DNA of 64,000 nucleotides from positions 186,001-250,000 of the forward strand of contig JAEUTZ010000004.1 of NCBI GenBank assembly GCA_016787725.1, written 5' to 3'. Origin of the DNA: Cyclobacteriaceae bacterium. Its GTDB lineage: Bacteria; Bacteroidota; Bacteroidia; Cytophagales; Cyclobacteriaceae. The notes under the pieces were generated by a model. The model saw only the letters and a list, made by a program, of their open reading frames with translations. It made no database searches and was not told where the DNA came from. Shown in pieces: positions 55,688 through 63,826 of the stretch. Position numbers and translations under genes: made by a program. Every line of letters starts with the position of its first letter. The stretch's first letter is position 1.

Positions 55688-55829
55688 AGCAGGTAATTTC
55701 AGGAACAGAAAGGTAGTACTCTGCTTCCGGATTTTGATACCGATAGAAACATGGAATTGCAGATTATTTTTTGCGTCATTGTCTTTGGTATGAAGAAAAT
55801 TCTTTTGCTCGCGTTGTTGCTGAACCAAT

Positions 55830-56482
55830 CCAATAAGAAGCGGGGATAACAGTTTTCGCTCGGGGATCAAACAAAAAAGCAACAGCAATCCAGAGCAGCG
55901 TTGGTTTGAGGGCGGAAGCGAAGGATCCCCCAATAAGAAACCAGATAACGTGCTTCGACCGAGGGGATTCTTCGCTCCATTCCGTTTCTTTCTTCAACAA
56001 TTCCTTACTAGTAAAGAACCTTTTCATCCACCAAGCGCAGCCACGATCCGCTCTGAATTGCTTTCAATATTTTTAGTAGACTCCGAAAAAAAGCAACCGC
56101 AATCCAGAGCAGCGGAGCAAGTGGGTTGGGGCGAAGGATCCCCCATAAAGAAGAGAGATAACGTGCTTCGCTCAAGGGGATTCTCCGCCAGTAGTCGGAC
56201 CAGCTGCTCCATTCCGTTTCTTTCTTCAACAATCCCTTACTCATAAAGAACCCTTTCATCCACCAAGCGCAGCCACGATCCGCTCTGAATTGCTTTCAAT
56301 TATTATTGTTATAAAAAGCAACCGCAATCCAGTCCAAGGGACTCCTTTGGAGAGCTTGGGTGGGGCTGAGCGGAGCGGGCGAAGGATCCCCCAATAAGAA
56401 GCGGGATAACAGTCTTCGCTCAAGGGGATTCTTCTCTGCCAGCTGGCGGAGAAGAATTGCTTTCAATATTTTGAGTAGACTC
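55830..56482. repeat. Degenerate multi-copy repeat block (no gene)
   Basis: The 862-base gap 55688-56549 contains no convincing gene. It holds at least three imperfect copies (about 55872-56080, 56089-56310, 56313-56482) and a partial one (55830-55866). Shared segments: AAAAAGCAACCGCAATCCAG at each start, GCGAAGGATCCCCCAATAAGAA, AAGGGGATTCT, CATTCCGTTTCTTTCTTCAA, and in copies 1 and 2 a 40+ base identical tail from CATCCACCAAGCGCAGCC to GAATTGCTTTCAAT. Open frames inside are products of the repeats. Confidence 0.8.
56428..56457. repeat. 30-bp near-perfect palindrome in the third repeat copy
   Basis: ATTCTTCTC-T-GCCAGCTGGC-G-GAGAAGAAT: one mismatched pair in a 30-base palindrome. Copy 2 of the block carries CCGCCAGTAGTCGGACCAGC at this place and copy 1 has nothing, so this looks like a separate small element inserted into the repeat. 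Confidence 0.75.
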
Positions 56483-56547
56483 AAGCTTTAAGCTTAAAAG
56501 CTTTAAGCTTTCCGCTTTAAACTTTAAACTTTCTACTTTAAACTTTC
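56482..56547. repeat. AAGCTTTAAGCTT/ACTTTAAACTTT word-like repeat
   Basis: A continuous run of CTTTAAGCTT and CTTTAAACTT units directly after the response-regulator stop codon. Same family as the repeats at 47.4, 53.9 and 59.8 kb; several units are self-complementary. Confidence 0.75.
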
Positions 56548-56549
56548 CC

Positions 56550-57182
56550 TCACAACTTAACTATCCCTCTCCTCACTGCCTCCAGCGCCAGCCCCGTACG
56601 ACTGCCCACATTGAACTTCTCAAACAAACTCTCGCGATAGCCATCCACCGTGCGTTCACTCACTTTCATGCGCCCGGCAATCTGCCGGTAGGTAAGGTCG
56701 CTGCAGGCCCACTGCAAAAACTCGCGCTCTTTGTCCGTGAGCGTAGCCGCCACCGGGTTCAGCATCAGCGTGGCCAGGTTGTTTTGTTTCAGGTCGGAGT
56801 TATAGTAGTTCTTGTGATACACTTCCGTCAGCGCCTGCTCCAGCACCTCAGGGGTGATGTCTTTTAATAAATACGAACAACAGCCGGCCCGGATCATCTC
56901 CAGCACAATCGTCTCCTGGTCATTCATCGACAACGCCACCAGCTTCATGGCCGGATACTGCTGCCGCAACCACCGCGCGGTGTCGCGCCCATTCAGCACC
57001 GGCATCTCCACATCCAGCAACATGATCTGGGGGATCACCGTTTGCCCATTCAGTTTCTCTTGTAAATCTTTTCCATTTTCAGCATCCACCACCACCTCAA
57101 AGCCCACAAAGCTCTGCACCATCATCGACAGCGCTTTGCGAAACAGGTGATGATCATCCACAAGGCCTACCGCAATCTTCAT
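56550..57182 (-). CDS. NarL/LuxR-family response regulator
   Basis: 210 residues from the ATG at 57182 (an ATG at 57188 overlaps the kinase stop as ATGA and is equally possible). The receiver domain has the acidic pocket VDDHH at 8-12, the phosphorylation site D57 in MLLDVEMPVLNG and the conserved Lys in YLLKDI. The C-terminal LuxR-type HTH covers ~145-205 (LTDKEREFLQWACSDLTYRQIAGRMKVSERTVDGYRESLFEK, core SERTVDGYR). It is the DNA-binding output of the kinase encoded next to it and may bind the palindromes at 58870-58925. Confidence 0.93.
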   Translation of the reverse strand: MKIAVGLVDDHHLFRKALSMMVQSFVGFEVVVDAENGKDLQEKLNGQTVIPQIMLLDVEMPVLNGRDTARWLRQQYPAMKLVALSMNDQETIVLEMIRAGCCSYLLKDITPEVLEQALTEVYHKNYYNSDLKQNNLATLMLNPVAATLTDKEREFLQWACSDLTYRQIAGRMKVSERTVDGYRESLFEKFNVGSRTGLALEAVRRGIVKL

Positions 57183-57184
57183 GG

Positions 57185-57946
57185 TCATCCGGTTATGGGG
57201 ATCTGAATCAGTACGACTGTGCCGGGGTGGCCGGCCTTCCATTGCACGGTGCCCCCCAACAGGGCCGTGCGCAACTTGATGTTGGTGATGCCAAACCCCT
57301 GCCGGGCCGGGTCCTGGAGGTCAAACCCTTTGCCATCATCGGTGATGTCAATGTGCAGGTGGCCATTCACCATTCGTAAAGTGATATGGATATGGCTCGG
57401 CTCGCCATGCTTCAATGCATTTTGAAAGGCTTCCTGTACGATGCGATACAGCACCAGTTGCCGGTCTTTGGGCATCGTCAGCGGAACCTGCTCCACCGTC
57501 ATGCGGATTTTGTTCGAGGCGTTGATGCGCTTCACTTCCGCTTCCAGGTTTTCCGTGAAGCTGAACTGCTCCAGCCACTCGTTGTTCAGCGACTTGCTCA
57601 GGCTGCGCAGCTCCTGGATGGCCAATGCCAACGTGTCGGCAGCCGTTTGCAGCGTGTCGGGTTGAGGCGCGCGTTGGGCCACCCCGATCAGCAACTTGCT
57701 GCTGTTCAGCAGCTGGCCGATGTTGTCGTGAATTTCCCGGCTTACCGTGTTGAGTGTGTACTCCTGCGTTTCGATGCGCGTCTTCAACAACTCTTCGCTG
57801 TACTGGTTCTGCAATTGCTGCTTTTCAAACTGGTACCGCAGTTGCCGTTTCTGGTACACGAGCAGCAACGATATAATGCCCACCGCCACCAGCAACAGAA
57901 AGACGCTGGCTATGACGATGATGTAAATTTCCTGCGCGAGATCCAT
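57185..57946 (-). CDS. Sensor histidine kinase (HisKA_3, NarX/DesK type)
   Basis: 253 residues. One membrane helix at about 9-30, then a coiled-coil linker. The phosphoacceptor is H73 in SREIHDNIGQLLNSSK. The ATPase domain has the N box in FQNALKHGEPSHI and the G boxes DDGKGFDL and GFGITNIK. There is no sensory domain of its own; the multi-pass protein encoded immediately upstream, overlapping by 37 bases, is the likely sensor. It hands phosphate to the regulator whose gene overlaps its stop. Confidence 0.92.
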   Translation of the reverse strand: MDLAQEIYIIVIASVFLLLVAVGIISLLLVYQKRQLRYQFEKQQLQNQYSEELLKTRIETQEYTLNTVSREIHDNIGQLLNSSKLLIGVAQRAPQPDTLQTAADTLALAIQELRSLSKSLNNEWLEQFSFTENLEAEVKRINASNKIRMTVEQVPLTMPKDRQLVLYRIVQEAFQNALKHGEPSHIHITLRMVNGHLHIDITDDGKGFDLQDPARQGFGITNIKLRTALLGGTVQWKAGHPGTVVLIQIPITG

Positions 57947-58620
57947 GCGGTGCCGTAAGCAGTAATGAGGCCTCCTAAAAATAAGATAACATTATGTACG
58001 ATCCACAGGTATGTAAGAATTATACCGATTTCATTCGCGTTGTCAGCGGCCAGCATCTTGTACGTAAAGTAGTTGTACGTTAAAAAGATGGCAAAGCTGC
58101 CCAGGTGATAAAACAACAACACACAGCTGAACCAGAACTCAAAATTCATCGACAACCGCTCGGTAATGTTTTGCAACAACTGAAGCAAATGCAGGAAAAT
58201 CAGAATTACGATGCCCAGCGATACGAGCGTATACCCGATGCTGTCGAAGTAGGGCTGGTGGCCCACCACCGAGTTCATTATATAATAGAGTGCGGTGCCC
58301 GCACTTACCCCCGCGGCAATCACTTTCTTCCAGGGGCGCTGCATCAGCAAAAAATAATACCCGCCTACAAACACCCCCGTGAGCAGGTACAGCATGTTGT
58401 AGAAGTGGGTGTTTACTTCCTGCGATTTGAAGCCGATGGACACGCGGGCCATCAGGGCCGTGGCTAGTCCGTAATACACGCACAGCCACACGATGGGTCG
58501 TCTGCGATCTACCTTGCGCGCATAATACAACAGCGCCCCAAAGTACAAACCAAAGGCAACGGGCTCCAGGTACGTTGAAAAGTAGATTTTCACTGCTCTC
58601 CACACGGGGGCCGGGGGCAC
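57910..58620 (-). CDS. Multi-pass membrane protein, probable sensory partner of the kinase
   Basis: 236 residues with about seven hydrophobic helices (LEPVAFGLYFGALLYYA; IVWLCVYYGLATAL; YNMLYLLTGVFVGGYYFLL; VIAAGVSAGTALYYIM; GYTLVSLGIVILIFLHLLQLL; FWFSCVLLFYHLGSFAIFL; LTYLWIVHNVILFLGGLI). No family is recognised. It is translationally coupled to the histidine kinase (37-base overlap), and the kinase lacks a sensor, so a joint signalling role is inferred. Confidence 0.75.
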   Translation of the reverse strand: MPPAPVWRAVKIYFSTYLEPVAFGLYFGALLYYARKVDRRRPIVWLCVYYGLATALMARVSIGFKSQEVNTHFYNMLYLLTGVFVGGYYFLLMQRPWKKVIAAGVSAGTALYYIMNSVVGHQPYFDSIGYTLVSLGIVILIFLHLLQLLQNITERLSMNFEFWFSCVLLFYHLGSFAIFLTYNYFTYKMLAADNANEIGIILTYLWIVHNVILFLGGLITAYGTAWISRRKFTSSS

Positions 58621-58814
58621 CCTTCAATTTCAAACTGGGTGGCTTGCGAACTTCCTTGCGGTCCACGGGCAATGATCTTCAACGCTCCGCGCTTCTCCGT
58701 GCCCACCAGCACTTCTTCAATACTCACCACACACACTACCTGGCCGGGCTTCGTGTCCAGCAGCCGCTGCATGTCTGCCGGGTTGAAAAAAAAGGTAAAG
58801 GCTTCAACAGTCAT
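58590..58814 (-). CDS. Small conserved-looking protein at the head of the two-component operon
   Basis: 74 residues from the ATG at 58814, chosen because the operator-like palindromes occupy the DNA just upstream. The sequence is a compact alpha/beta mix (AFTFFFNPADMQRLLDTKPG; VVCVVSIEEVLVGTEKRGALKIIA; core VVCVVSIEEV) and ends in a Cys-Pro-rich tail (GCPRPPCGEQ). No family recognised. It overlaps the membrane protein start by 31 bases, so the operon reads small protein - membrane protein - kinase - regulator. Confidence 0.55.
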   Translation of the reverse strand: MTVEAFTFFFNPADMQRLLDTKPGQVVCVVSIEEVLVGTEKRGALKIIARGPQGSSQATQFEIEGCPRPPCGEQ

Positions 58815-58869
58815 AAGGGGTTTTGGTTGATCCGGTTCAAAGATCACCATTTCCCCGGGCTTTGGGTAC

Positions 58870-58925
58870 GGGAAAAATCCCAACCCGCAGGGGAAATTTC
58901 CCGGACTGGAACCGGGGAAATTCCC
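58870..58925. promoter_or_regulatory. Three phased palindromes in a divergent promoter region
   Basis: Sites: GGGAAAAATCCC (58870-58881), GGGAAATTTCCC (58891-58902, perfect) and GGGAAATTCCC (58915-58925, perfect). Centres are 21 and 23.5 bases apart, about two helical turns, so dimers would sit on one face. They lie in the 146-base gap between the small-protein/kinase operon and the two helical-protein genes. A candidate operator for the adjacent NarL-type regulator. Confidence 0.7.
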
Positions 58926-58960
58926 GTTGTACACCCAGCCGCGGTACAGCACCTTCGGGT

Positions 58961-59416
58961 ATGAAAAAACTTCCTGTGGTTACTGAGGCGGTGGACAAGG
59001 GCGTGTCCATGGCGCTCGTCATCGATGTGCTGCGCGCCAGCCGCGAGCTCTACTATTTTTCAAAGGTGCTGTACCTGCAAGATGATACCGACCGGCACCA
59101 GCTCGCACACCTGCTTACGCAGATTGGCGGGATGGTGAAAACCTTATACGGGTCGTTGGTGGATGGCCACCTGCCCATGAACCTTACCCTTCGGCTGGAG
59201 CAACTCGGCTACGAACTGGACTACCGGCTCGAGCCGGTGCTGGGCCGCATGCGCGCACAAACGCTGGCCGACAAATTCAATCAATCCCACCGCGTGCGCC
59301 TGCTGCATCGCGAACTGGAAAGCGGCATGCTCGATGTGCGCGAGCTGGTGCTGCTCGATGAAGCCGCCAATCATTTATTGGAAACCGCCAACCGCCTGCG
59401 GGCCGAAGCGCTATGA
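58961..59416 (+). CDS. Helical protein of unknown function, paralogue 1
   Basis: 151 residues from the ATG at 58961; an open extension upstream runs through the palindromes and was rejected. All-helical and hydrophilic. IDVLRASRELYYFSKVL and TDRHQLAHLLTQIGGMVKTLYGSLVDG open it; it closes with LLDEAANHLLETANRLRAE. The central TDR-x-x-LA-x-LL...IGxxV pattern and the end recur in the next protein. No family recognised. GC content is visibly above that of the left half of the window. ATGA overlap with the next gene. Confidence 0.65.
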   Translation: MKKLPVVTEAVDKGVSMALVIDVLRASRELYYFSKVLYLQDDTDRHQLAHLLTQIGGMVKTLYGSLVDGHLPMNLTLRLEQLGYELDYRLEPVLGRMRAQTLADKFNQSHRVRLLHRELESGMLDVRELVLLDEAANHLLETANRLRAEAL

Positions 59417-59784
59417 TCCACGACATCTGGCACATCGGGCAGGCCGTGCGCAAAGCGGTAACAGAACTACACCAACGCAACACGATCGACCGCTTCCGGC
59501 TCGCCAACCTGCTTGAACACCTGGGCCATGTGCTGCTGCACACGCACGACCAACTAAACGCGGGCCTCGACCCGCATCCGGAAGACCGCATTCAATTATT
59601 AAGTGAAGAAGTGTATTTCAAGCTGGCGGTACTGGTAACGGAAACACCCGCCATGGCCCACGACCACCTGCTGCGCATGGGCCAGGGCCCCCTGCGCCTC
59701 ACCACCGACCCGCACGCGCTGCACCTGCTGCGCGAAGCCGCTCATGATTTTATTGAAAGCTCGAAGGAATTGCGGGGAAGTTAA
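59413..59784 (+). CDS. Helical protein of unknown function, paralogue 2
   Basis: 123 residues, starting in the ATGA shared with paralogue 1. IDRFRLANLLEHLGHVLLHTHDQLNAG matches TDRHQLAHLLTQIGGMVKTLYGSLVDG of the upstream protein, and HLLREAAHDFIESSKELR matches its C-terminus, so the pair is a tandem duplication. Coupled translation suggests they act together, perhaps as a heteromer. Function unknown; position next to a two-component system suggests they are its targets. Confidence 0.65.
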   Translation: MIHDIWHIGQAVRKAVTELHQRNTIDRFRLANLLEHLGHVLLHTHDQLNAGLDPHPEDRIQLLSEEVYFKLAVLVTETPAMAHDHLLRMGQGPLRLTTDPHALHLLREAAHDFIESSKELRGS

Positions 59785-60032: not shown

Positions 60033-60950
60033 ATGTCATTCATCCTCATCAAAGGTACGTTTCACATCCTGGGCAAGGAACCGGATGGAGACTCGGTTCG
60101 CTTTAAAGCAAACAACAAAGCACACTGGAAAAAGCTGACCACCGAAGACGGCAAGCCGGTAACCAAAGACATTACCAGCAAAGCAGACGGCACCGTACAA
60201 CTGCGCATCGAATCGATCGATGCACTGGAAACACACTACAAAGGCAAGAACCAACCCATGCGCCTGGCAAAACCGGCAACGATGAAAATCCTTTCGTTGT
60301 TGGGATTCAGAAATGTGCAACTGGGACCTTCCGGTAAAAAGGTGGTGGCCGTAGATAACGATGGCGTGCCCGGCTACATCCTCACGCGGTACATCGACAA
60401 CCCGCTCTACAGCCGGCCCGTGGCTTTTGTGTTCGCGGGCAGCAGCAGTTTACCGGATGGCAAGGACAACGTATTTCTCGATGTGCCCCTGCTGCGCAAG
60501 AGCATCAATTATAAAATGATGCAGTCGGGCCTGGTCTATCCGGTGTATTACAATACGTTGTTTTACGATTTGCGCAATGCGTTTACCAATGCCCTGCAGG
60601 GGGCCCGGCAAAAGCGCGAACACCTGTGGCACCGGCAACAAGGCGACTCTACCAACACCGGGTTCAAAGCGATTAAGATTGTGGACCTGGAGGACAAGGA
60701 AATTGTGTTTCCGAAACTGTTTCGCAGGCTGGCCGATTTTCACAGCGACAAGAAAATCACCTACACCAAATCGTTGAAGAATTTCAAGGACAAGTATTTA
60801 CCGCCCAAAGGCGATGTGGTGGAGATCATGCCGATTAACCATACCACCGATGCCCTCGATTACCTGATTGACGTGGTCAACGCCAGCACGCTGCGATTGA
60901 AGTACAAACCGGAAGAACTCAAGTTCTTCCAGCCACGGCCGAAAAAGTAA
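60033..60950 (+). CDS. SNase-like (thermonuclease-fold) protein
   Basis: 305 residues, no signal peptide. The N-terminal ~150 residues fit the staphylococcal nuclease OB-fold: ILGKEPDGDSVRFKAN supplies the calcium-type acidic residues, and VQLRIESIDALETH (about residues 56-69) keeps the spacing R-x-x-x-I-D-A-x-E of the catalytic RLxGIDAPE motif. A later arginine needed for catalysis is not assigned with certainty. The C-terminal half is helical and unknown. Cytosolic location differs from secreted thermonucleases. First of a four-gene unit, 13 bases before the oxygenase-like gene. Confidence 0.7.
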   Translation: MSFILIKGTFHILGKEPDGDSVRFKANNKAHWKKLTTEDGKPVTKDITSKADGTVQLRIESIDALETHYKGKNQPMRLAKPATMKILSLLGFRNVQLGPSGKKVVAVDNDGVPGYILTRYIDNPLYSRPVAFVFAGSSSLPDGKDNVFLDVPLLRKSINYKMMQSGLVYPVYYNTLFYDLRNAFTNALQGARQKREHLWHRQQGDSTNTGFKAIKIVDLEDKEIVFPKLFRRLADFHSDKKITYTKSLKNFKDKYLPPKGDVVEIMPINHTTDALDYLIDVVNASTLRLKYKPEELKFFQPRPKK

Positions 60951-60963
60951 AACACTTTCCATC

Positions 60964-61727
60964 ATGAATCGATTCCCAAACGAGTTTGAAGACCTGCTTA
61001 CCAGGAAGGGACGTAAAATACTCAGGCATGGTTTACCGGAATCACCATTTACAAACAAGCGCAAAACACCGGTAGTGGTGATTGATGGGATCATCAATGA
61101 ACGCCTGGCGCAGGATTGCATGAAACTCCTGAATCAGCATTTCAGTGCGCATCTTAAAACAATCGCAGGGCCCATAGATAAAGACGAGTTGCGCAACATG
61201 AAGGAGAATTATTCCGAGAAATTGGCCAAGACGCTGCGTATGCAAACACTGGAGATTGGCGGTCGCAGATCCAACTCCTTTCAGATAGCCACGCAATGCG
61301 GATTGATCCAGATGCTGAATTCGTCATCGCTAAAAGCCTTTGGCGAAGCTGTAACCGGAAGCACGTTTGGCACCCCGGAGAATAATCAAATCATCCTGTA
61401 CCGCCATGAAGATTATGTGAGTCCGCACAACGACCACCACCCCGAGAACCGGAAGTACGAAAGGGGTATTATGACATGCACCTCATGTTTTCTAACCGCC
61501 ACGTAGCGCATCAGTATTTGATTTACGAAAATCAGGGATTTCTAAACGGTGTGGCAGACATTGCGGGAACCGCAGCAATGGCTATTTATCGCCTGCCCTT
61601 TTGGCATTATACTACGCCTCTGATTGCAAAGCGAGGACAGGAACGAACAGCCATGCGCTGGCTGCTTCTCCGCTCATTTCAAATGAACAATAAACATCTC
61701 GGCAATGGCAAATACAACAAAAAATGA
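60964..61727 (+). pseudogene. 2-oxoglutarate/Fe(II) oxygenase-like gene split by a one-base frameshift
   Basis: The first frame runs 60964-61506 (180 codons) and the continuation 61476-61727. The break is at the G run 61463-61466: five Gs instead of four would give YERGYYDMHLMF and join the frames into one protein of about 254 residues. Across the join the oxygenase ligands are complete: H-N-D (HxD) in YVSPHNDHH, the distal His in PFWHYTTPL and the 2OG-binding Arg in GQERTAMRW. Unjoined, the product lacks the distal His and Arg. The 3' end overlaps the deaminase gene by 23 bases. Confidence 0.75.
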
Positions 61728-62709
61728 AATCCTGATTCAATACTGGGATAAGTCCGTATCAACATTAGCGACCCGGGCCGTCAATAAAATTTCGGAGCCC
61801 CAACAGGAACGCCACCGACTATACGCATTACTGGCCATGGCCGCCACCCACTATTTTTGGAATGGCGACAAGCGCGGGAAGAATGGCCGCTACCCGATGA
61901 ACGTACCAGTAACAGCCAATAGCTCAAAATACCTGAAGGGAGATTACCTGGGACACAACATCCTGGCGCTGGCGGTCGATTTTGATGGTCACATCATCGA
62001 CTTTGAAATGAACCATAACCTGATCTATAACAGTTCGGCTGAGCATGCCGAAGCCCGCCTCATTAAAAGAATTTTTAGTCTTGCTTCGTTGGCCGACACC
62101 TGGAAATTTGAAGTCTCCGGACACGACCAAAATGATTACAACACCTTTCGCGATGTCAGCATATACACCACCCTGGAATCCTGCTCGCAGTGTTCCGGGG
62201 TCATGGCCCTCGCTCAGGTAAAAGAGGTAATCTACCTGCAAACAGACAACGGCATGTATTTGATTGGAAATATATTAAGAAACTTAACGCAAGGCACCAA
62301 ACTGCAGGCGCCCAACCCGATTGACGGTACTGAAATCAGCCTTCCTTATTTTTCGCAATTGAATGAGGCCTTTGATGCATTCTGTAAAACGGTTTCCGAA
62401 TCAAAACCGTTCTTTATTCCCACTGATCCGAACGAGAAGGTGGATGCTTCCAAATCCGTTACCTCGTTTCTCTGTACAGAAAGTGCTTACCGGATCTTCG
62501 AAGCCGCAAAAGAAGAGCTCGGGAATTACCTCTCCGGAAAAACACCGCTTCGGTTTCCGGACTATCAGCCAAGCCGCAGCGTAACCAACTTGCACGGTAA
62601 GTCCATCACTACCGAATCGACCATGACCAACAAAGCGGTAATAAAGGAAATCGCTTCTTTCTATTCCTACATTCAAATTAATGGCAGACGGGCAACCCCA
62701 CACCGATAA
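61705..62709 (+). CDS. Zinc-dependent nucleoside/nucleic-acid deaminase-like protein
   Basis: 334 residues. The cytidine-deaminase-fold zinc site is present: H-A-E in SAEHAEARLIKRIF (about residue 114, proton-shuttling Glu) and the C-x-x-C in TLESCSQCSGVMALAQV near 151-157; the usual PCxxC has Ser before the first Cys. About 90 residues precede the domain and 130 follow, longer than free-nucleotide deaminases. Substrate (nucleotide, tRNA, DNA) cannot be told. It overlaps the oxygenase-like gene by 23 bases and precedes the membrane protein by 12. Confidence 0.82.
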   Translation: MANTTKNEILIQYWDKSVSTLATRAVNKISEPQQERHRLYALLAMAATHYFWNGDKRGKNGRYPMNVPVTANSSKYLKGDYLGHNILALAVDFDGHIIDFEMNHNLIYNSSAEHAEARLIKRIFSLASLADTWKFEVSGHDQNDYNTFRDVSIYTTLESCSQCSGVMALAQVKEVIYLQTDNGMYLIGNILRNLTQGTKLQAPNPIDGTEISLPYFSQLNEAFDAFCKTVSESKPFFIPTDPNEKVDASKSVTSFLCTESAYRIFEAAKEELGNYLSGKTPLRFPDYQPSRSVTNLHGKSITTESTMTNKAVIKEIASFYSYIQINGRRATPHR

Positions 62710-62721
62710 ACAAAATTCACC

Positions 62722-63411
62722 ATGTCCCTCAAAACCTACCTCACCACCCTCGCCACCGAGCGCAGCCCGGTGCCCGAGGTCATCTCGTTCCGCGCCACGC
62801 GCCAGGCCATTGGGTGGTTCGGCATGCTGCTGCCCTTGGCGCTCTCGTTCGGCAACTGGCTGTTGGGCAACTGTTGCGTGCTGCAGCCCTCCATCAGCCA
62901 CTACTATTATACCAACATGCGCGAGCTGTTCGTAGGCACACTGTGTGCGGTGGCGTTGTTCCTGTTTACCTACAAAGGCCACAGCAAGCTGGACAGCTAT
63001 GCCGCCAACGCAGCCGGGTTGTTTTGCCTGGGCATTGCCCTCTTTCCCACCGAGCTTGCGACTATTTCCTGCCAGGCACCGGTAGTCAGCATCTTTGCGA
63101 TCGACTGGCAATGGATCCTGCACTACATTAGTGCGGCCTTGTTCTTTTTGGTGTTGGCTTATATGAGCGGCTTTTTGTTTACCAAAAGCAACCTGCCGCC
63201 TGCGCAACAACCACTACGCAAGCGCCAACGCAACCGCCTCTATAAAGCCTGTGCGGCCATCATGGTAGGGTGTATTGTTGGGATCGGTGTGAACCACCTC
63301 TTTTTTGATCCGCAGCCCGAAAGCACGCTAACCTTCTGGCTCGAAGCATTGGCCCTCGTGGCCTTTGGCGTGAGTTGGTTAACGAAGGGGGAGGCGATGT
63401 TGGCGGATTGA
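62722..63411 (+). CDS. Multi-pass membrane protein of the deaminase cassette
   Basis: 229 residues with six or seven hydrophobic helices (AIGWFGMLLPLALSFGNWLL; ELFVGTLCAVALFLFTY; AANAAGLFCLGIALFP; WILHYISAALFFLVLAYMSGF; ACAAIMVGCIVGIGVNHLFF, core IMVGCIVGIGV; ALALVAFGVSWL). The loop motif PSISHYYYTNMRELFVG is characteristic of an uncharacterised family of small membrane proteins. Last gene of the four-gene unit; it could be its membrane effector or sensor. Confidence 0.75.
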   Translation: MSLKTYLTTLATERSPVPEVISFRATRQAIGWFGMLLPLALSFGNWLLGNCCVLQPSISHYYYTNMRELFVGTLCAVALFLFTYKGHSKLDSYAANAAGLFCLGIALFPTELATISCQAPVVSIFAIDWQWILHYISAALFFLVLAYMSGFLFTKSNLPPAQQPLRKRQRNRLYKACAAIMVGCIVGIGVNHLFFDPQPESTLTFWLEALALVAFGVSWLTKGEAMLAD

Positions 63412-63443: not shown

Positions 63444-63660
63444 TTAAAAAAATGAGACATGAAAGAATTATCCATACTAACCACACCTGATTTCATCGCC
63501 ACAAGAATTCTGTTTCTGCGAGGCGAAAAAGTGCTGCTGGATGCTGATTTAGCCTTGCTATACGGTGTTGAAACCAAAGTCTTGAAGCAAGCGGTCAGAA
63601 GAAATATCGACCGTTTTCCTGAAGATTTTCTTTTTGAATTATCAACCGAAGAGTGGAATT

Positions 63661-63689
63661 CTCTAAGGTCACAAATTGTGACCTTAGAG
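63661..63689. repeat. 29-bp perfect palindrome inside the ORF6N coding region
   Basis: Fourteen-base arms CTCTAAGGTCACAA/TTGTGACCTTAGAG around a single A. It encodes SLRSQIVTLE in frame. The central GTCACAAATTGTGAC resembles the inverted repeat upstream of the same gene. Confidence 0.9.
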
Positions 63690-63806
63690 AAAGGAAGAGG
63701 TAAATATTCCAAATACCCACCCTTCGCCTTCACCGAGCAAGGCGTGGCCATGCTCAGCGGTATTCTCAACAGCCCCCGTGCTGTGGAAACCAACATTGCT
63801 ATTATG

Positions 63807-63826
63807 CCTGCCTGCCGGTAGGCAGG
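63807..63826. mobile_element. 20-bp palindromic insertion CCTGCCTGCCGGTAGGCAGG
   Basis: The element lies between an in-frame ATG and AGAACC of the ORF6N gene. Removing exactly these 20 bases restores the conserved reading frame. It is a palindrome except for one G-T pair near the centre, a form seen as scattered small repeats in Bacteroidota genomes. Confidence 0.75.

What the first reader, a model, noticed from the sequence alone, without database searches (positions are those of the whole stretch)
60033..63411. Candidate undescribed module: SNase-like protein, 2OG/Fe(II) oxygenase, zinc deaminase, membrane protein
Four genes in one direction with gaps of 13 and 12 bases and one 23-base overlap form a tight unit. 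Three carry folds that act on nucleic acids or nucleotides: a nuclease-like OB-fold with the R..IDA.E motif, an HxD...H...R oxygenase and a HAE/CxxC deaminase; the fourth is a multi-pass membrane protein. I know of no named pathway with this set. Modification or damage of bases followed by nuclease and membrane action would suit a defence or stress response, but this is inference. Its flanks (repeats, a broken ORF6N gene) fit an accessory locus.
Basis: partly seen in the sequence, partly recalled or inferred. Interest (0 to 1): 0.8.

Follow-up and report, generated by a model that had tools for sequence, protein, structure and literature searches.

The report
Unrelated accessory genes beside defence island
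Four neighbouring bacterial genes look like a team, but no other genome examined has them together, one of them is split by a frameshift, and they sit in a variable spot next to a DNA-restriction system, so they are probably unrelated passengers and not a new pathway.

Summary
Three of the four genes are intact and lie as described: an SNase-like protein (60033-60950), a zinc deaminase (61705-62709) and a membrane protein (62722-63411). The "oxygenase" is not one open reading frame: its HxD half (60964-61506) and distal H...R half (to 61727) lie in different frames, while a class relative (G588) carries the protein intact at 55% identity. SNase fold and deaminase zinc motif are supported; the oxygenase fold rests on a motif alone. 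No conserved module was seen: in a 395-genome phylum sample only the own genome matches any two of SNase, oxygenase N-piece and deaminase, and none of 93 other neighbourhoods examined holds a second member (27, 65, one). Gene composition is mixed. The set begins where synteny with a same-genus genome ends, and past the window lie two Fic genes and a type I restriction system. Best reading: accessory genes collected at a variable site beside a defence island, perhaps co-transcribed, not a pathway. One lead remains: both known copies of the oxygenase-like gene lie near type I restriction genes (n = 2). Sampling was limited, so a rare module is not excluded.

The parts
60033..60950 (+). SNase-like protein, 305 aa: SNase-type domain (about residues 1-190) plus conserved C-terminal extension
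   Evidence: ORF; D18, D20, R58, D63, E66, R128 the same in 10 of 10 aligned; 8 of 10 aligned proteins match PF00565 at E<=0.01, the window protein itself not (E 0.017); Foldseek best matches are staphylococcal nuclease entries
60964..61506 (+). N-terminal piece of the oxygenase-like gene (HxD half), ends in a premature stop
   Evidence: 85 of 166 residues identical to the intact G588 protein
61410..61727 (+). C-terminal piece of the oxygenase-like gene in another frame (distal H and R/K); open frame from 61410, alignable with G588 from about 61464
   Evidence: 49 of 75 residues identical to the intact G588 protein
61705..62709 (+). zinc-dependent deaminase, 334 aa, HAE and TLESCSQC motifs
   Evidence: PF00383 above cut-off (28.2 vs 25 bits); H114, E116, C160, C163 the same in 8 of 8 aligned
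62722..63411 (+). membrane protein, 229 aa, at least four hydrophobic segments, weakly DUF7103-like
63459..63826 (+). ORF6N gene, ORF ends within a 20-base palindrome (63807-63826)
   Evidence: PF10543 E 1.1e-32
58976..59784 (+). left flank: two small genes with relatives in order in same-genus G553; the shared order stops after them

Best explanation
A variable chromosomal site next to a type I restriction-modification island has collected accessory genes of different origin. The four genes point one way and are close enough to share a transcript (inferred), but they do not form a conserved pathway. Each most likely acts alone. The SNase-like protein is a nuclease that cuts nucleic acid by the staphylococcal-nuclease mechanism (fold and residues shown, activity inferred). 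The deaminase is a zinc-dependent hydrolytic deaminase of a free base, nucleoside or nucleic acid (zinc motif shown, substrate unknown). The membrane protein belongs to a more widespread family that occurs without the others. The oxygenase-like gene is frameshifted: either recently lost or a sequencing error.
For: In phylum samples of 395 genomes (same handles in each call, so taken as one sample) the deaminase matches in 17 genomes, the oxygenase N-piece in 1, the own, the SNase in 7, the membrane protein in 34, own genome counted in each; SNase and deaminase meet only in the own genome. In a 148-genome family sample the deaminase is in 1, the own. Of 27 other loci with one member, none has a second at BLASTP E<=0.01. 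Of 65 genome contigs deaminase loci none has an SNase, oxygenase or membrane match at E<=0.05. G588 has the oxygenase without the other three within about 10 kb on each side. SNase relatives have other neighbours, e.g. a GMC oxidoreductase in 4 of 8 plasmid loci, two of the four nearly identical. GC3 differs by gene: 0.68, 0.57/0.48, 0.55, 0.76. Gene order shared with G553 ends at 59784, before the set. Downstream: two Fic genes and DUF3800, hsdM, and hsdS and hsdR named by my reading of the ORFs and their similarity to G588's.
Against: The gaps of 13 and 12 bases and the 23-base overlap are operon-like. The only oxygenase orthologue turned up in a separate 149-genome class sample, so rare relatives exist outside the phylum sample. 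The oxygenase's C-terminal piece was not searched on its own in the phylum sample.
Confidence: 0.72

Rival explanations
1. A real but very rare multi-gene defence or stress module: the oxygenase and deaminase modify bases, the SNase cuts modified or foreign nucleic acid, and the membrane protein executes or anchors the response.
For: Tight same-strand spacing; position beside the only PF02384 (HsdM-type) gene of the genome, with Fic and DUF3800 genes.
Against: No second genome with any two members adjacent among those examined; no PADLOC match except one at E 0.033; oxygenase frameshifted in this assembly; mixed composition.
Confidence: 0.08
2. Only the oxygenase-like gene matters: it is an accessory enzyme of type I restriction islands, acting near or on DNA, and its neighbours here are incidental.
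For: Both known copies lie near type I restriction genes: about 6.6 kb from hsdM here (one PF02384 match in 4.2 Mb) and 0.8 kb after hsdR in G588 (two strong PF02384 matches, E<1e-100, and two weak ones in 4.6 Mb). The two restriction systems differ strongly (hsdM 30%, hsdR 23% identity).
Against: Only two copies, counted after the fact. It is sporadic: 1 of 40 genomes of G588's genus, G588 itself. Defence islands collect many unrelated genes (recalled). The oxygenase fold is unproven.
Confidence: 0.15
3. The frameshift is a sequencing or assembly error, and the operon has four intact genes in the living strain. (A question within either reading above, so these odds are separate.)
For: Both pieces remain similar to the intact G588 protein (85 of 166 and 49 of 75 residues), so the loss, if real, is recent. 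The tools show no reads.
Against: A neighbouring accessory gene, ORF6N, is also truncated, so decay at this site is plausible. Whether a programmed shift could join the frames was considered only by reading the sequence, not tested.
Confidence: 0.4

Closest known systems
Staphylococcal nuclease family (PF00565)
   Same: Fold: best Foldseek match prob 1.00, E 3.2e-4, TM 0.62 by target length, rmsd 5.0; catalytic-type R, D, E, R positions
   Different: Window protein alone is below the Pfam cut-off (16 vs 21 bits); conserved C-terminal extension with PKLFRR
Zinc deaminase superfamily: PF00383, MafB19-deam PF14437, Bd3614-deam PF14439
   Same: HxE and CxxC motifs; PF00383 above cut-off; weak matches to dCMP deaminase and TadA models or chains
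   Different: Below cut-off for PF14437 (25 vs 27 bits) and PF14439 (19.4 vs 38.5); a 334-aa protein, not the C-terminal end of a large toxin; TLESC where its seven aligned relatives have TLEPC
2OG/Fe(II) oxygenases (PF13640/PF13661)
   Same: HxD-X57-H-X12-[RK] in the two pieces taken together and in G588
   Different: No Pfam match at E<=10; profile comparison below the best shuffles; model unusable
Type I restriction-modification islands
   Same: Both oxygenase-like loci lie in or next to one
   Different: None of the four genes is a restriction component

Membership tests
SNase (PF00565) | SNase OB-type fold | tested here: met
   Foldseek: 22 matches at E<=0.001; 19 have staphylococcal nuclease in the title, the other three (1kda, 1kdb, 1kdc) do not name the protein. 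Model mean pLDDT 58.8; residues 195-305 below 50
SNase (PF00565) | Catalytic R, D, E and second R (roles recalled from staphylococcal nuclease) | tested here: met
   R58, D63, E66, R128 the same in 10 of 10
SNase (PF00565) | Profile score over the Pfam cut-off | tested here: not met
   16 vs 21 bits, E 0.017, for the window protein; 8 of 10 aligned members match at E<=0.01, the window protein not among them
Zinc deaminase superfamily (PF00383) | HxE and CxxC zinc site, profile over cut-off | tested here: met
   28.2 vs 25 bits; 8 of 8 aligned
MafB19 / Bd3614 deaminases | Profile over the curated cut-off | tested here: not met
   25 vs 27 and 19.4 vs 38.5 bits
2OG/Fe(II) oxygenase superfamily | HxD...H...R/K in one polypeptide (motif recalled) | tested here: inconclusive
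   Present in intact G588; split over two frames in the window; a lax form also occurs in 19 of 155 ORFs of 200-350 aa
2OG/Fe(II) oxygenase superfamily | Double-stranded beta-helix fold | tested here: inconclusive
   AlphaFold model of G588 mean pLDDT 33.5 with 3 rows; hhalign score 15.6, reversed control 18.3, best of 100 shuffles 22.5, with only two sequences in the query
Conserved multi-gene module | Members found together in other genomes | tested here: not met
   Samples and neighbourhoods
Known anti-phage system (PADLOC) | Match to a PADLOC model | tested here: not met
   Five proteins scanned at E<=1; one match, E 0.033
DUF7103 | Profile over the Pfam cut-off | tested here: not met
   24.5 vs 27 bits, E 2.9e-5
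Any of the enzymes | Catalytic activity | not testable with these tools
   Needs purified protein

The most novel reading that the evidence does not exclude
An unclassified protein family with an HxD...H...R/K signature, seen so far in two genomes of different families, travels with type I restriction islands and may be a DNA- or nucleotide-acting iron oxygenase that supports or counteracts restriction; in this genome it has been joined in one transcription unit with a deaminase and an SNase to give a base-modifying, nucleic-acid-cutting defence operon.
Probability: 0.08. Interest if true: 0.6.

Novelty: new member of a known kind. Interest (0 to 1): 0.2.

Why it matters
It closes what is probably a false lead: a set of genes that looks like a pathway by content and spacing is, on the comparative evidence gathered, a collection beside a defence island, with one member broken in this assembly. 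It leaves one narrow lead, an unclassified HxD...H protein family found twice near type I restriction genes.

Tried and rejected
Single-protein scans of viral contigs for the deaminase, SNase, oxygenase N-piece, oxygenase C-piece and the G588 protein found no relative. Protein searches of plasmids and phages for the deaminase and the oxygenase-like protein (for the window; 67, plasmids only, for G588) found no match or only matches at E of 0.5 or worse. The four weak class matches to the oxygenase string (E 0.04 to 0.09) were not followed up. The idea that the deaminase is a polymorphic-toxin domain was set aside: toxin-type profiles score below cut-off and the aligned relatives are 214-285 aa proteins. 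A sigma-70-type and terminator-like scan gave counts near the shuffle means (5 vs 4.2 and 6 vs 5.6), and the TTTG/TAnnTTTG pattern (recalled as Bacteroidetes-type) has one match in the window, far from the genes, so transcription as one unit was neither supported nor refuted. The oxygenase model was too poor for a fold search and none was run. Paper searches showed no description of this gene set in their listings; that is all these searches can say. I recalled, but could not see, a 2011 survey of deaminase evolution by Iyer and colleagues. Of PMC3482391 and PMC7641849 I saw passages only; other papers as search listings.

Full report
What is in the sequence. The window (G000:C15:186001-250000) has, on the + strand, ORFs at 60033-60950 (305 aa), 60964-61506 (180 aa), 61476-61727 (83 aa from its first ATG), 61705-62709 (334 aa) and 62722-63411 (229 aa). 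The gaps of 13 and 12 bases and the 23-base overlap in the finding are right, but the second gene is two ORFs in different frames. The HxD piece stops at 61504-61506; the piece with the distal H and R/K is open in another frame from 61410 to 61727. A search of 149 genomes of the class with the two pieces read as one string (X at the change of frame) gave 6 genomes at E<=0.1: the own, G588 (E 1.3e-89, 55% identity, one open frame) and four weak ones at E 0.04 to 0.09 that I did not follow. In the aligned pair 85 of 166 residues of the first part and 49 of 75 of the second are identical. So the pieces belong to one protein that is intact elsewhere and frameshifted in this assembly. Whether the shift is real or a sequencing error cannot be told here.

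What each protein is. SNase: weak for the window protein alone (PF00565, 16 bits against a cut-off of 21), but 8 of 10 aligned proteins match PF00565 at E<=0.01, the window's not among them, the catalytic-type positions are the same in 10 of 10, and the model (mean pLDDT 58.8, residues 195-305 below 50) has 22 Foldseek matches at E<=0.001, 19 titled as staphylococcal nuclease and three whose titles name no protein. Deaminase: PF00383 above cut-off, MafB19 and Bd3614 profiles below theirs, zinc site kept in 8 of 8. Membrane protein: at least four hydrophobic segments, nearest DUF7103 below cut-off. Oxygenase-like protein: no Pfam match at E<=10 for the window string or the G588 protein; an unusable model (mean pLDDT 33.5); and a profile comparison with 15 PF13640 relatives that scores 15.6, below a reversed control (18.3) and the best of 100 shuffles (22.5), with only two sequences in the query and so little power. 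A lax form of the motif is found in 19 of 155 ORFs of 200-350 aa. The likeness to prolyl-hydroxylase-type sequences that I see by eye is therefore a lead, not a result.

Do the four travel together? In phylum samples of 395 genomes (the handles recur from call to call, so I take it as one sample) the deaminase matches in 17 genomes (6 of them at E<=7.1e-9, own included), the oxygenase N-piece in 1, the SNase in 7 (4 at E<=3e-23, own included) and the membrane protein in 34. Only the own genome combines SNase and deaminase. Three other genomes (G433, G384, G472) combine a weak deaminase match (E 1.5e-4 to 8.1e-4) with a membrane match; in G433 these lie about 23 kb apart, in G384 and G472 on different contigs. 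In a 148-genome family sample the deaminase is found only in the own genome. I took wider flanks for 27 loci with one member: 10 of 33 other membrane genomes, 6 of 16 other deaminase genomes, 3 of 6 other SNase genomes, and 8 of 9 plasmid SNase records; two of these contigs are shorter than 8 kb. None has a second member at BLASTP E<=0.01. None of the 65 has an SNase, oxygenase or membrane match at E<=0.05 in flanks of up to 8 kb. SNase relatives on plasmids lie beside a GMC oxidoreductase in 4 of 8 loci, two of them nearly identical records. The G588 oxygenase has none of the other three within about 10 kb on each side, and no relative was found in the other 39 genomes of its genus. This is against a conserved module. 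The limit is sampling: rarer relatives may exist.

Where they sit. Same-genus G553 shares the genes from 56550 to 59784 in order and then differs; G538 and G537 share only the 56550-58620 block. One own ORF about 16 kb past the window's end matches G553 further along the same stretch (29% identity), which may or may not mark the far side of the variable region. To the right, past the truncated ORF6N gene and the window's end, lie two Fic genes and a DUF3800 gene (Pfam), hsdM (PF02384) and, by my reading of the ORFs, an hsdS piece, hsdS and hsdR (L067; window-equivalent about 64676-75454). This hsdM is the only PF02384 match in the genome. Gene composition is mixed: GC3 0.68 (SNase), 0.57 and 0.48 (oxygenase pieces), 0.55 (deaminase), 0.76 (membrane). 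Together this reads as a variable site beside a defence island that has collected genes of different origin.

A residual lead. In G588 the intact oxygenase-like gene starts 0.8 kb after an hsdR-like gene of a type I system that has a RhuM gene (PF13310) and, by reading, a transposase-like gene inside. That system differs strongly from the one here (hsdM 30%, hsdR 23% identity). With one PF02384 match in 4.2 Mb here and two strong and two weak ones in 4.6 Mb there, lying within 8 kb of hsdM in both genomes would be unlikely for random placement, but the count is two, made after the fact, and defence islands hold many unrelated genes (recalled). I give an association 0.15.

Likely working. Shown: nuclease fold and residues, deaminase zinc site, frame break in this assembly, lack of co-occurrence in the samples, the restriction-system neighbour. 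Inferred: co-transcription (promoter and terminator scans were uninformative), enzyme activities, independent roles. Not known: substrates, and whether the oxygenase-like protein is an oxygenase.

Noticed in passing
63807-63826: A 20-base near-perfect palindrome lies where the ORF6N frame ends early. It has no other copy in the window with up to 2 mismatches; among 193 fetched loci a variant pattern is found only in five loci of the own genome that overlap this site.
   Followed up: partly
L067 5328-5442 and 6410-6524; 6028-6336 and 8040-8347: 115 bases at the end of the membrane gene recur 1082 bases downstream (83%), and a direct repeat of about 310 bases in two adjoining pieces (90-93%) brackets the first Fic gene, signs of duplication at this site.
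   Followed up: partly
L068, L069, L071, L072, L087 (weaker in L088): Five of the seven aligned deaminase relatives, and more weakly a sixth, have a hydrophobic N-terminal segment like an export signal, which the window protein and L076 lack: a stand-alone, perhaps exported deaminase family.
   Followed up: partly
L073 5371-6093, L074 8275-8994: In two genomes the SNase relative lies directly beside a gene on the same strand that looks sirtuin-like (by recall of the FTGAGMSAESGVPTYRG stretch; no family search).
   Followed up: no
L021, L024, L027, L028: SNase relatives on one Methylobacterium and three Streptomycetaceae plasmids are neighbours of a GMC oxidoreductase and a small dehydrogenase subunit; L024 and L028 are nearly identical records.
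   Followed up: partly
L160 8226-12513: After the same conserved block, G553 carries other genes, including an RDD-family and a patatin-like phospholipase gene (PF06271, PF01734), which suggests a site that varies between relatives.
   Followed up: partly
55776-56484: Several overlapping ORFs here share repeated segments (for example SNSERIVAALGG twice), pointing to an intergenic repeat array.
   Followed up: no
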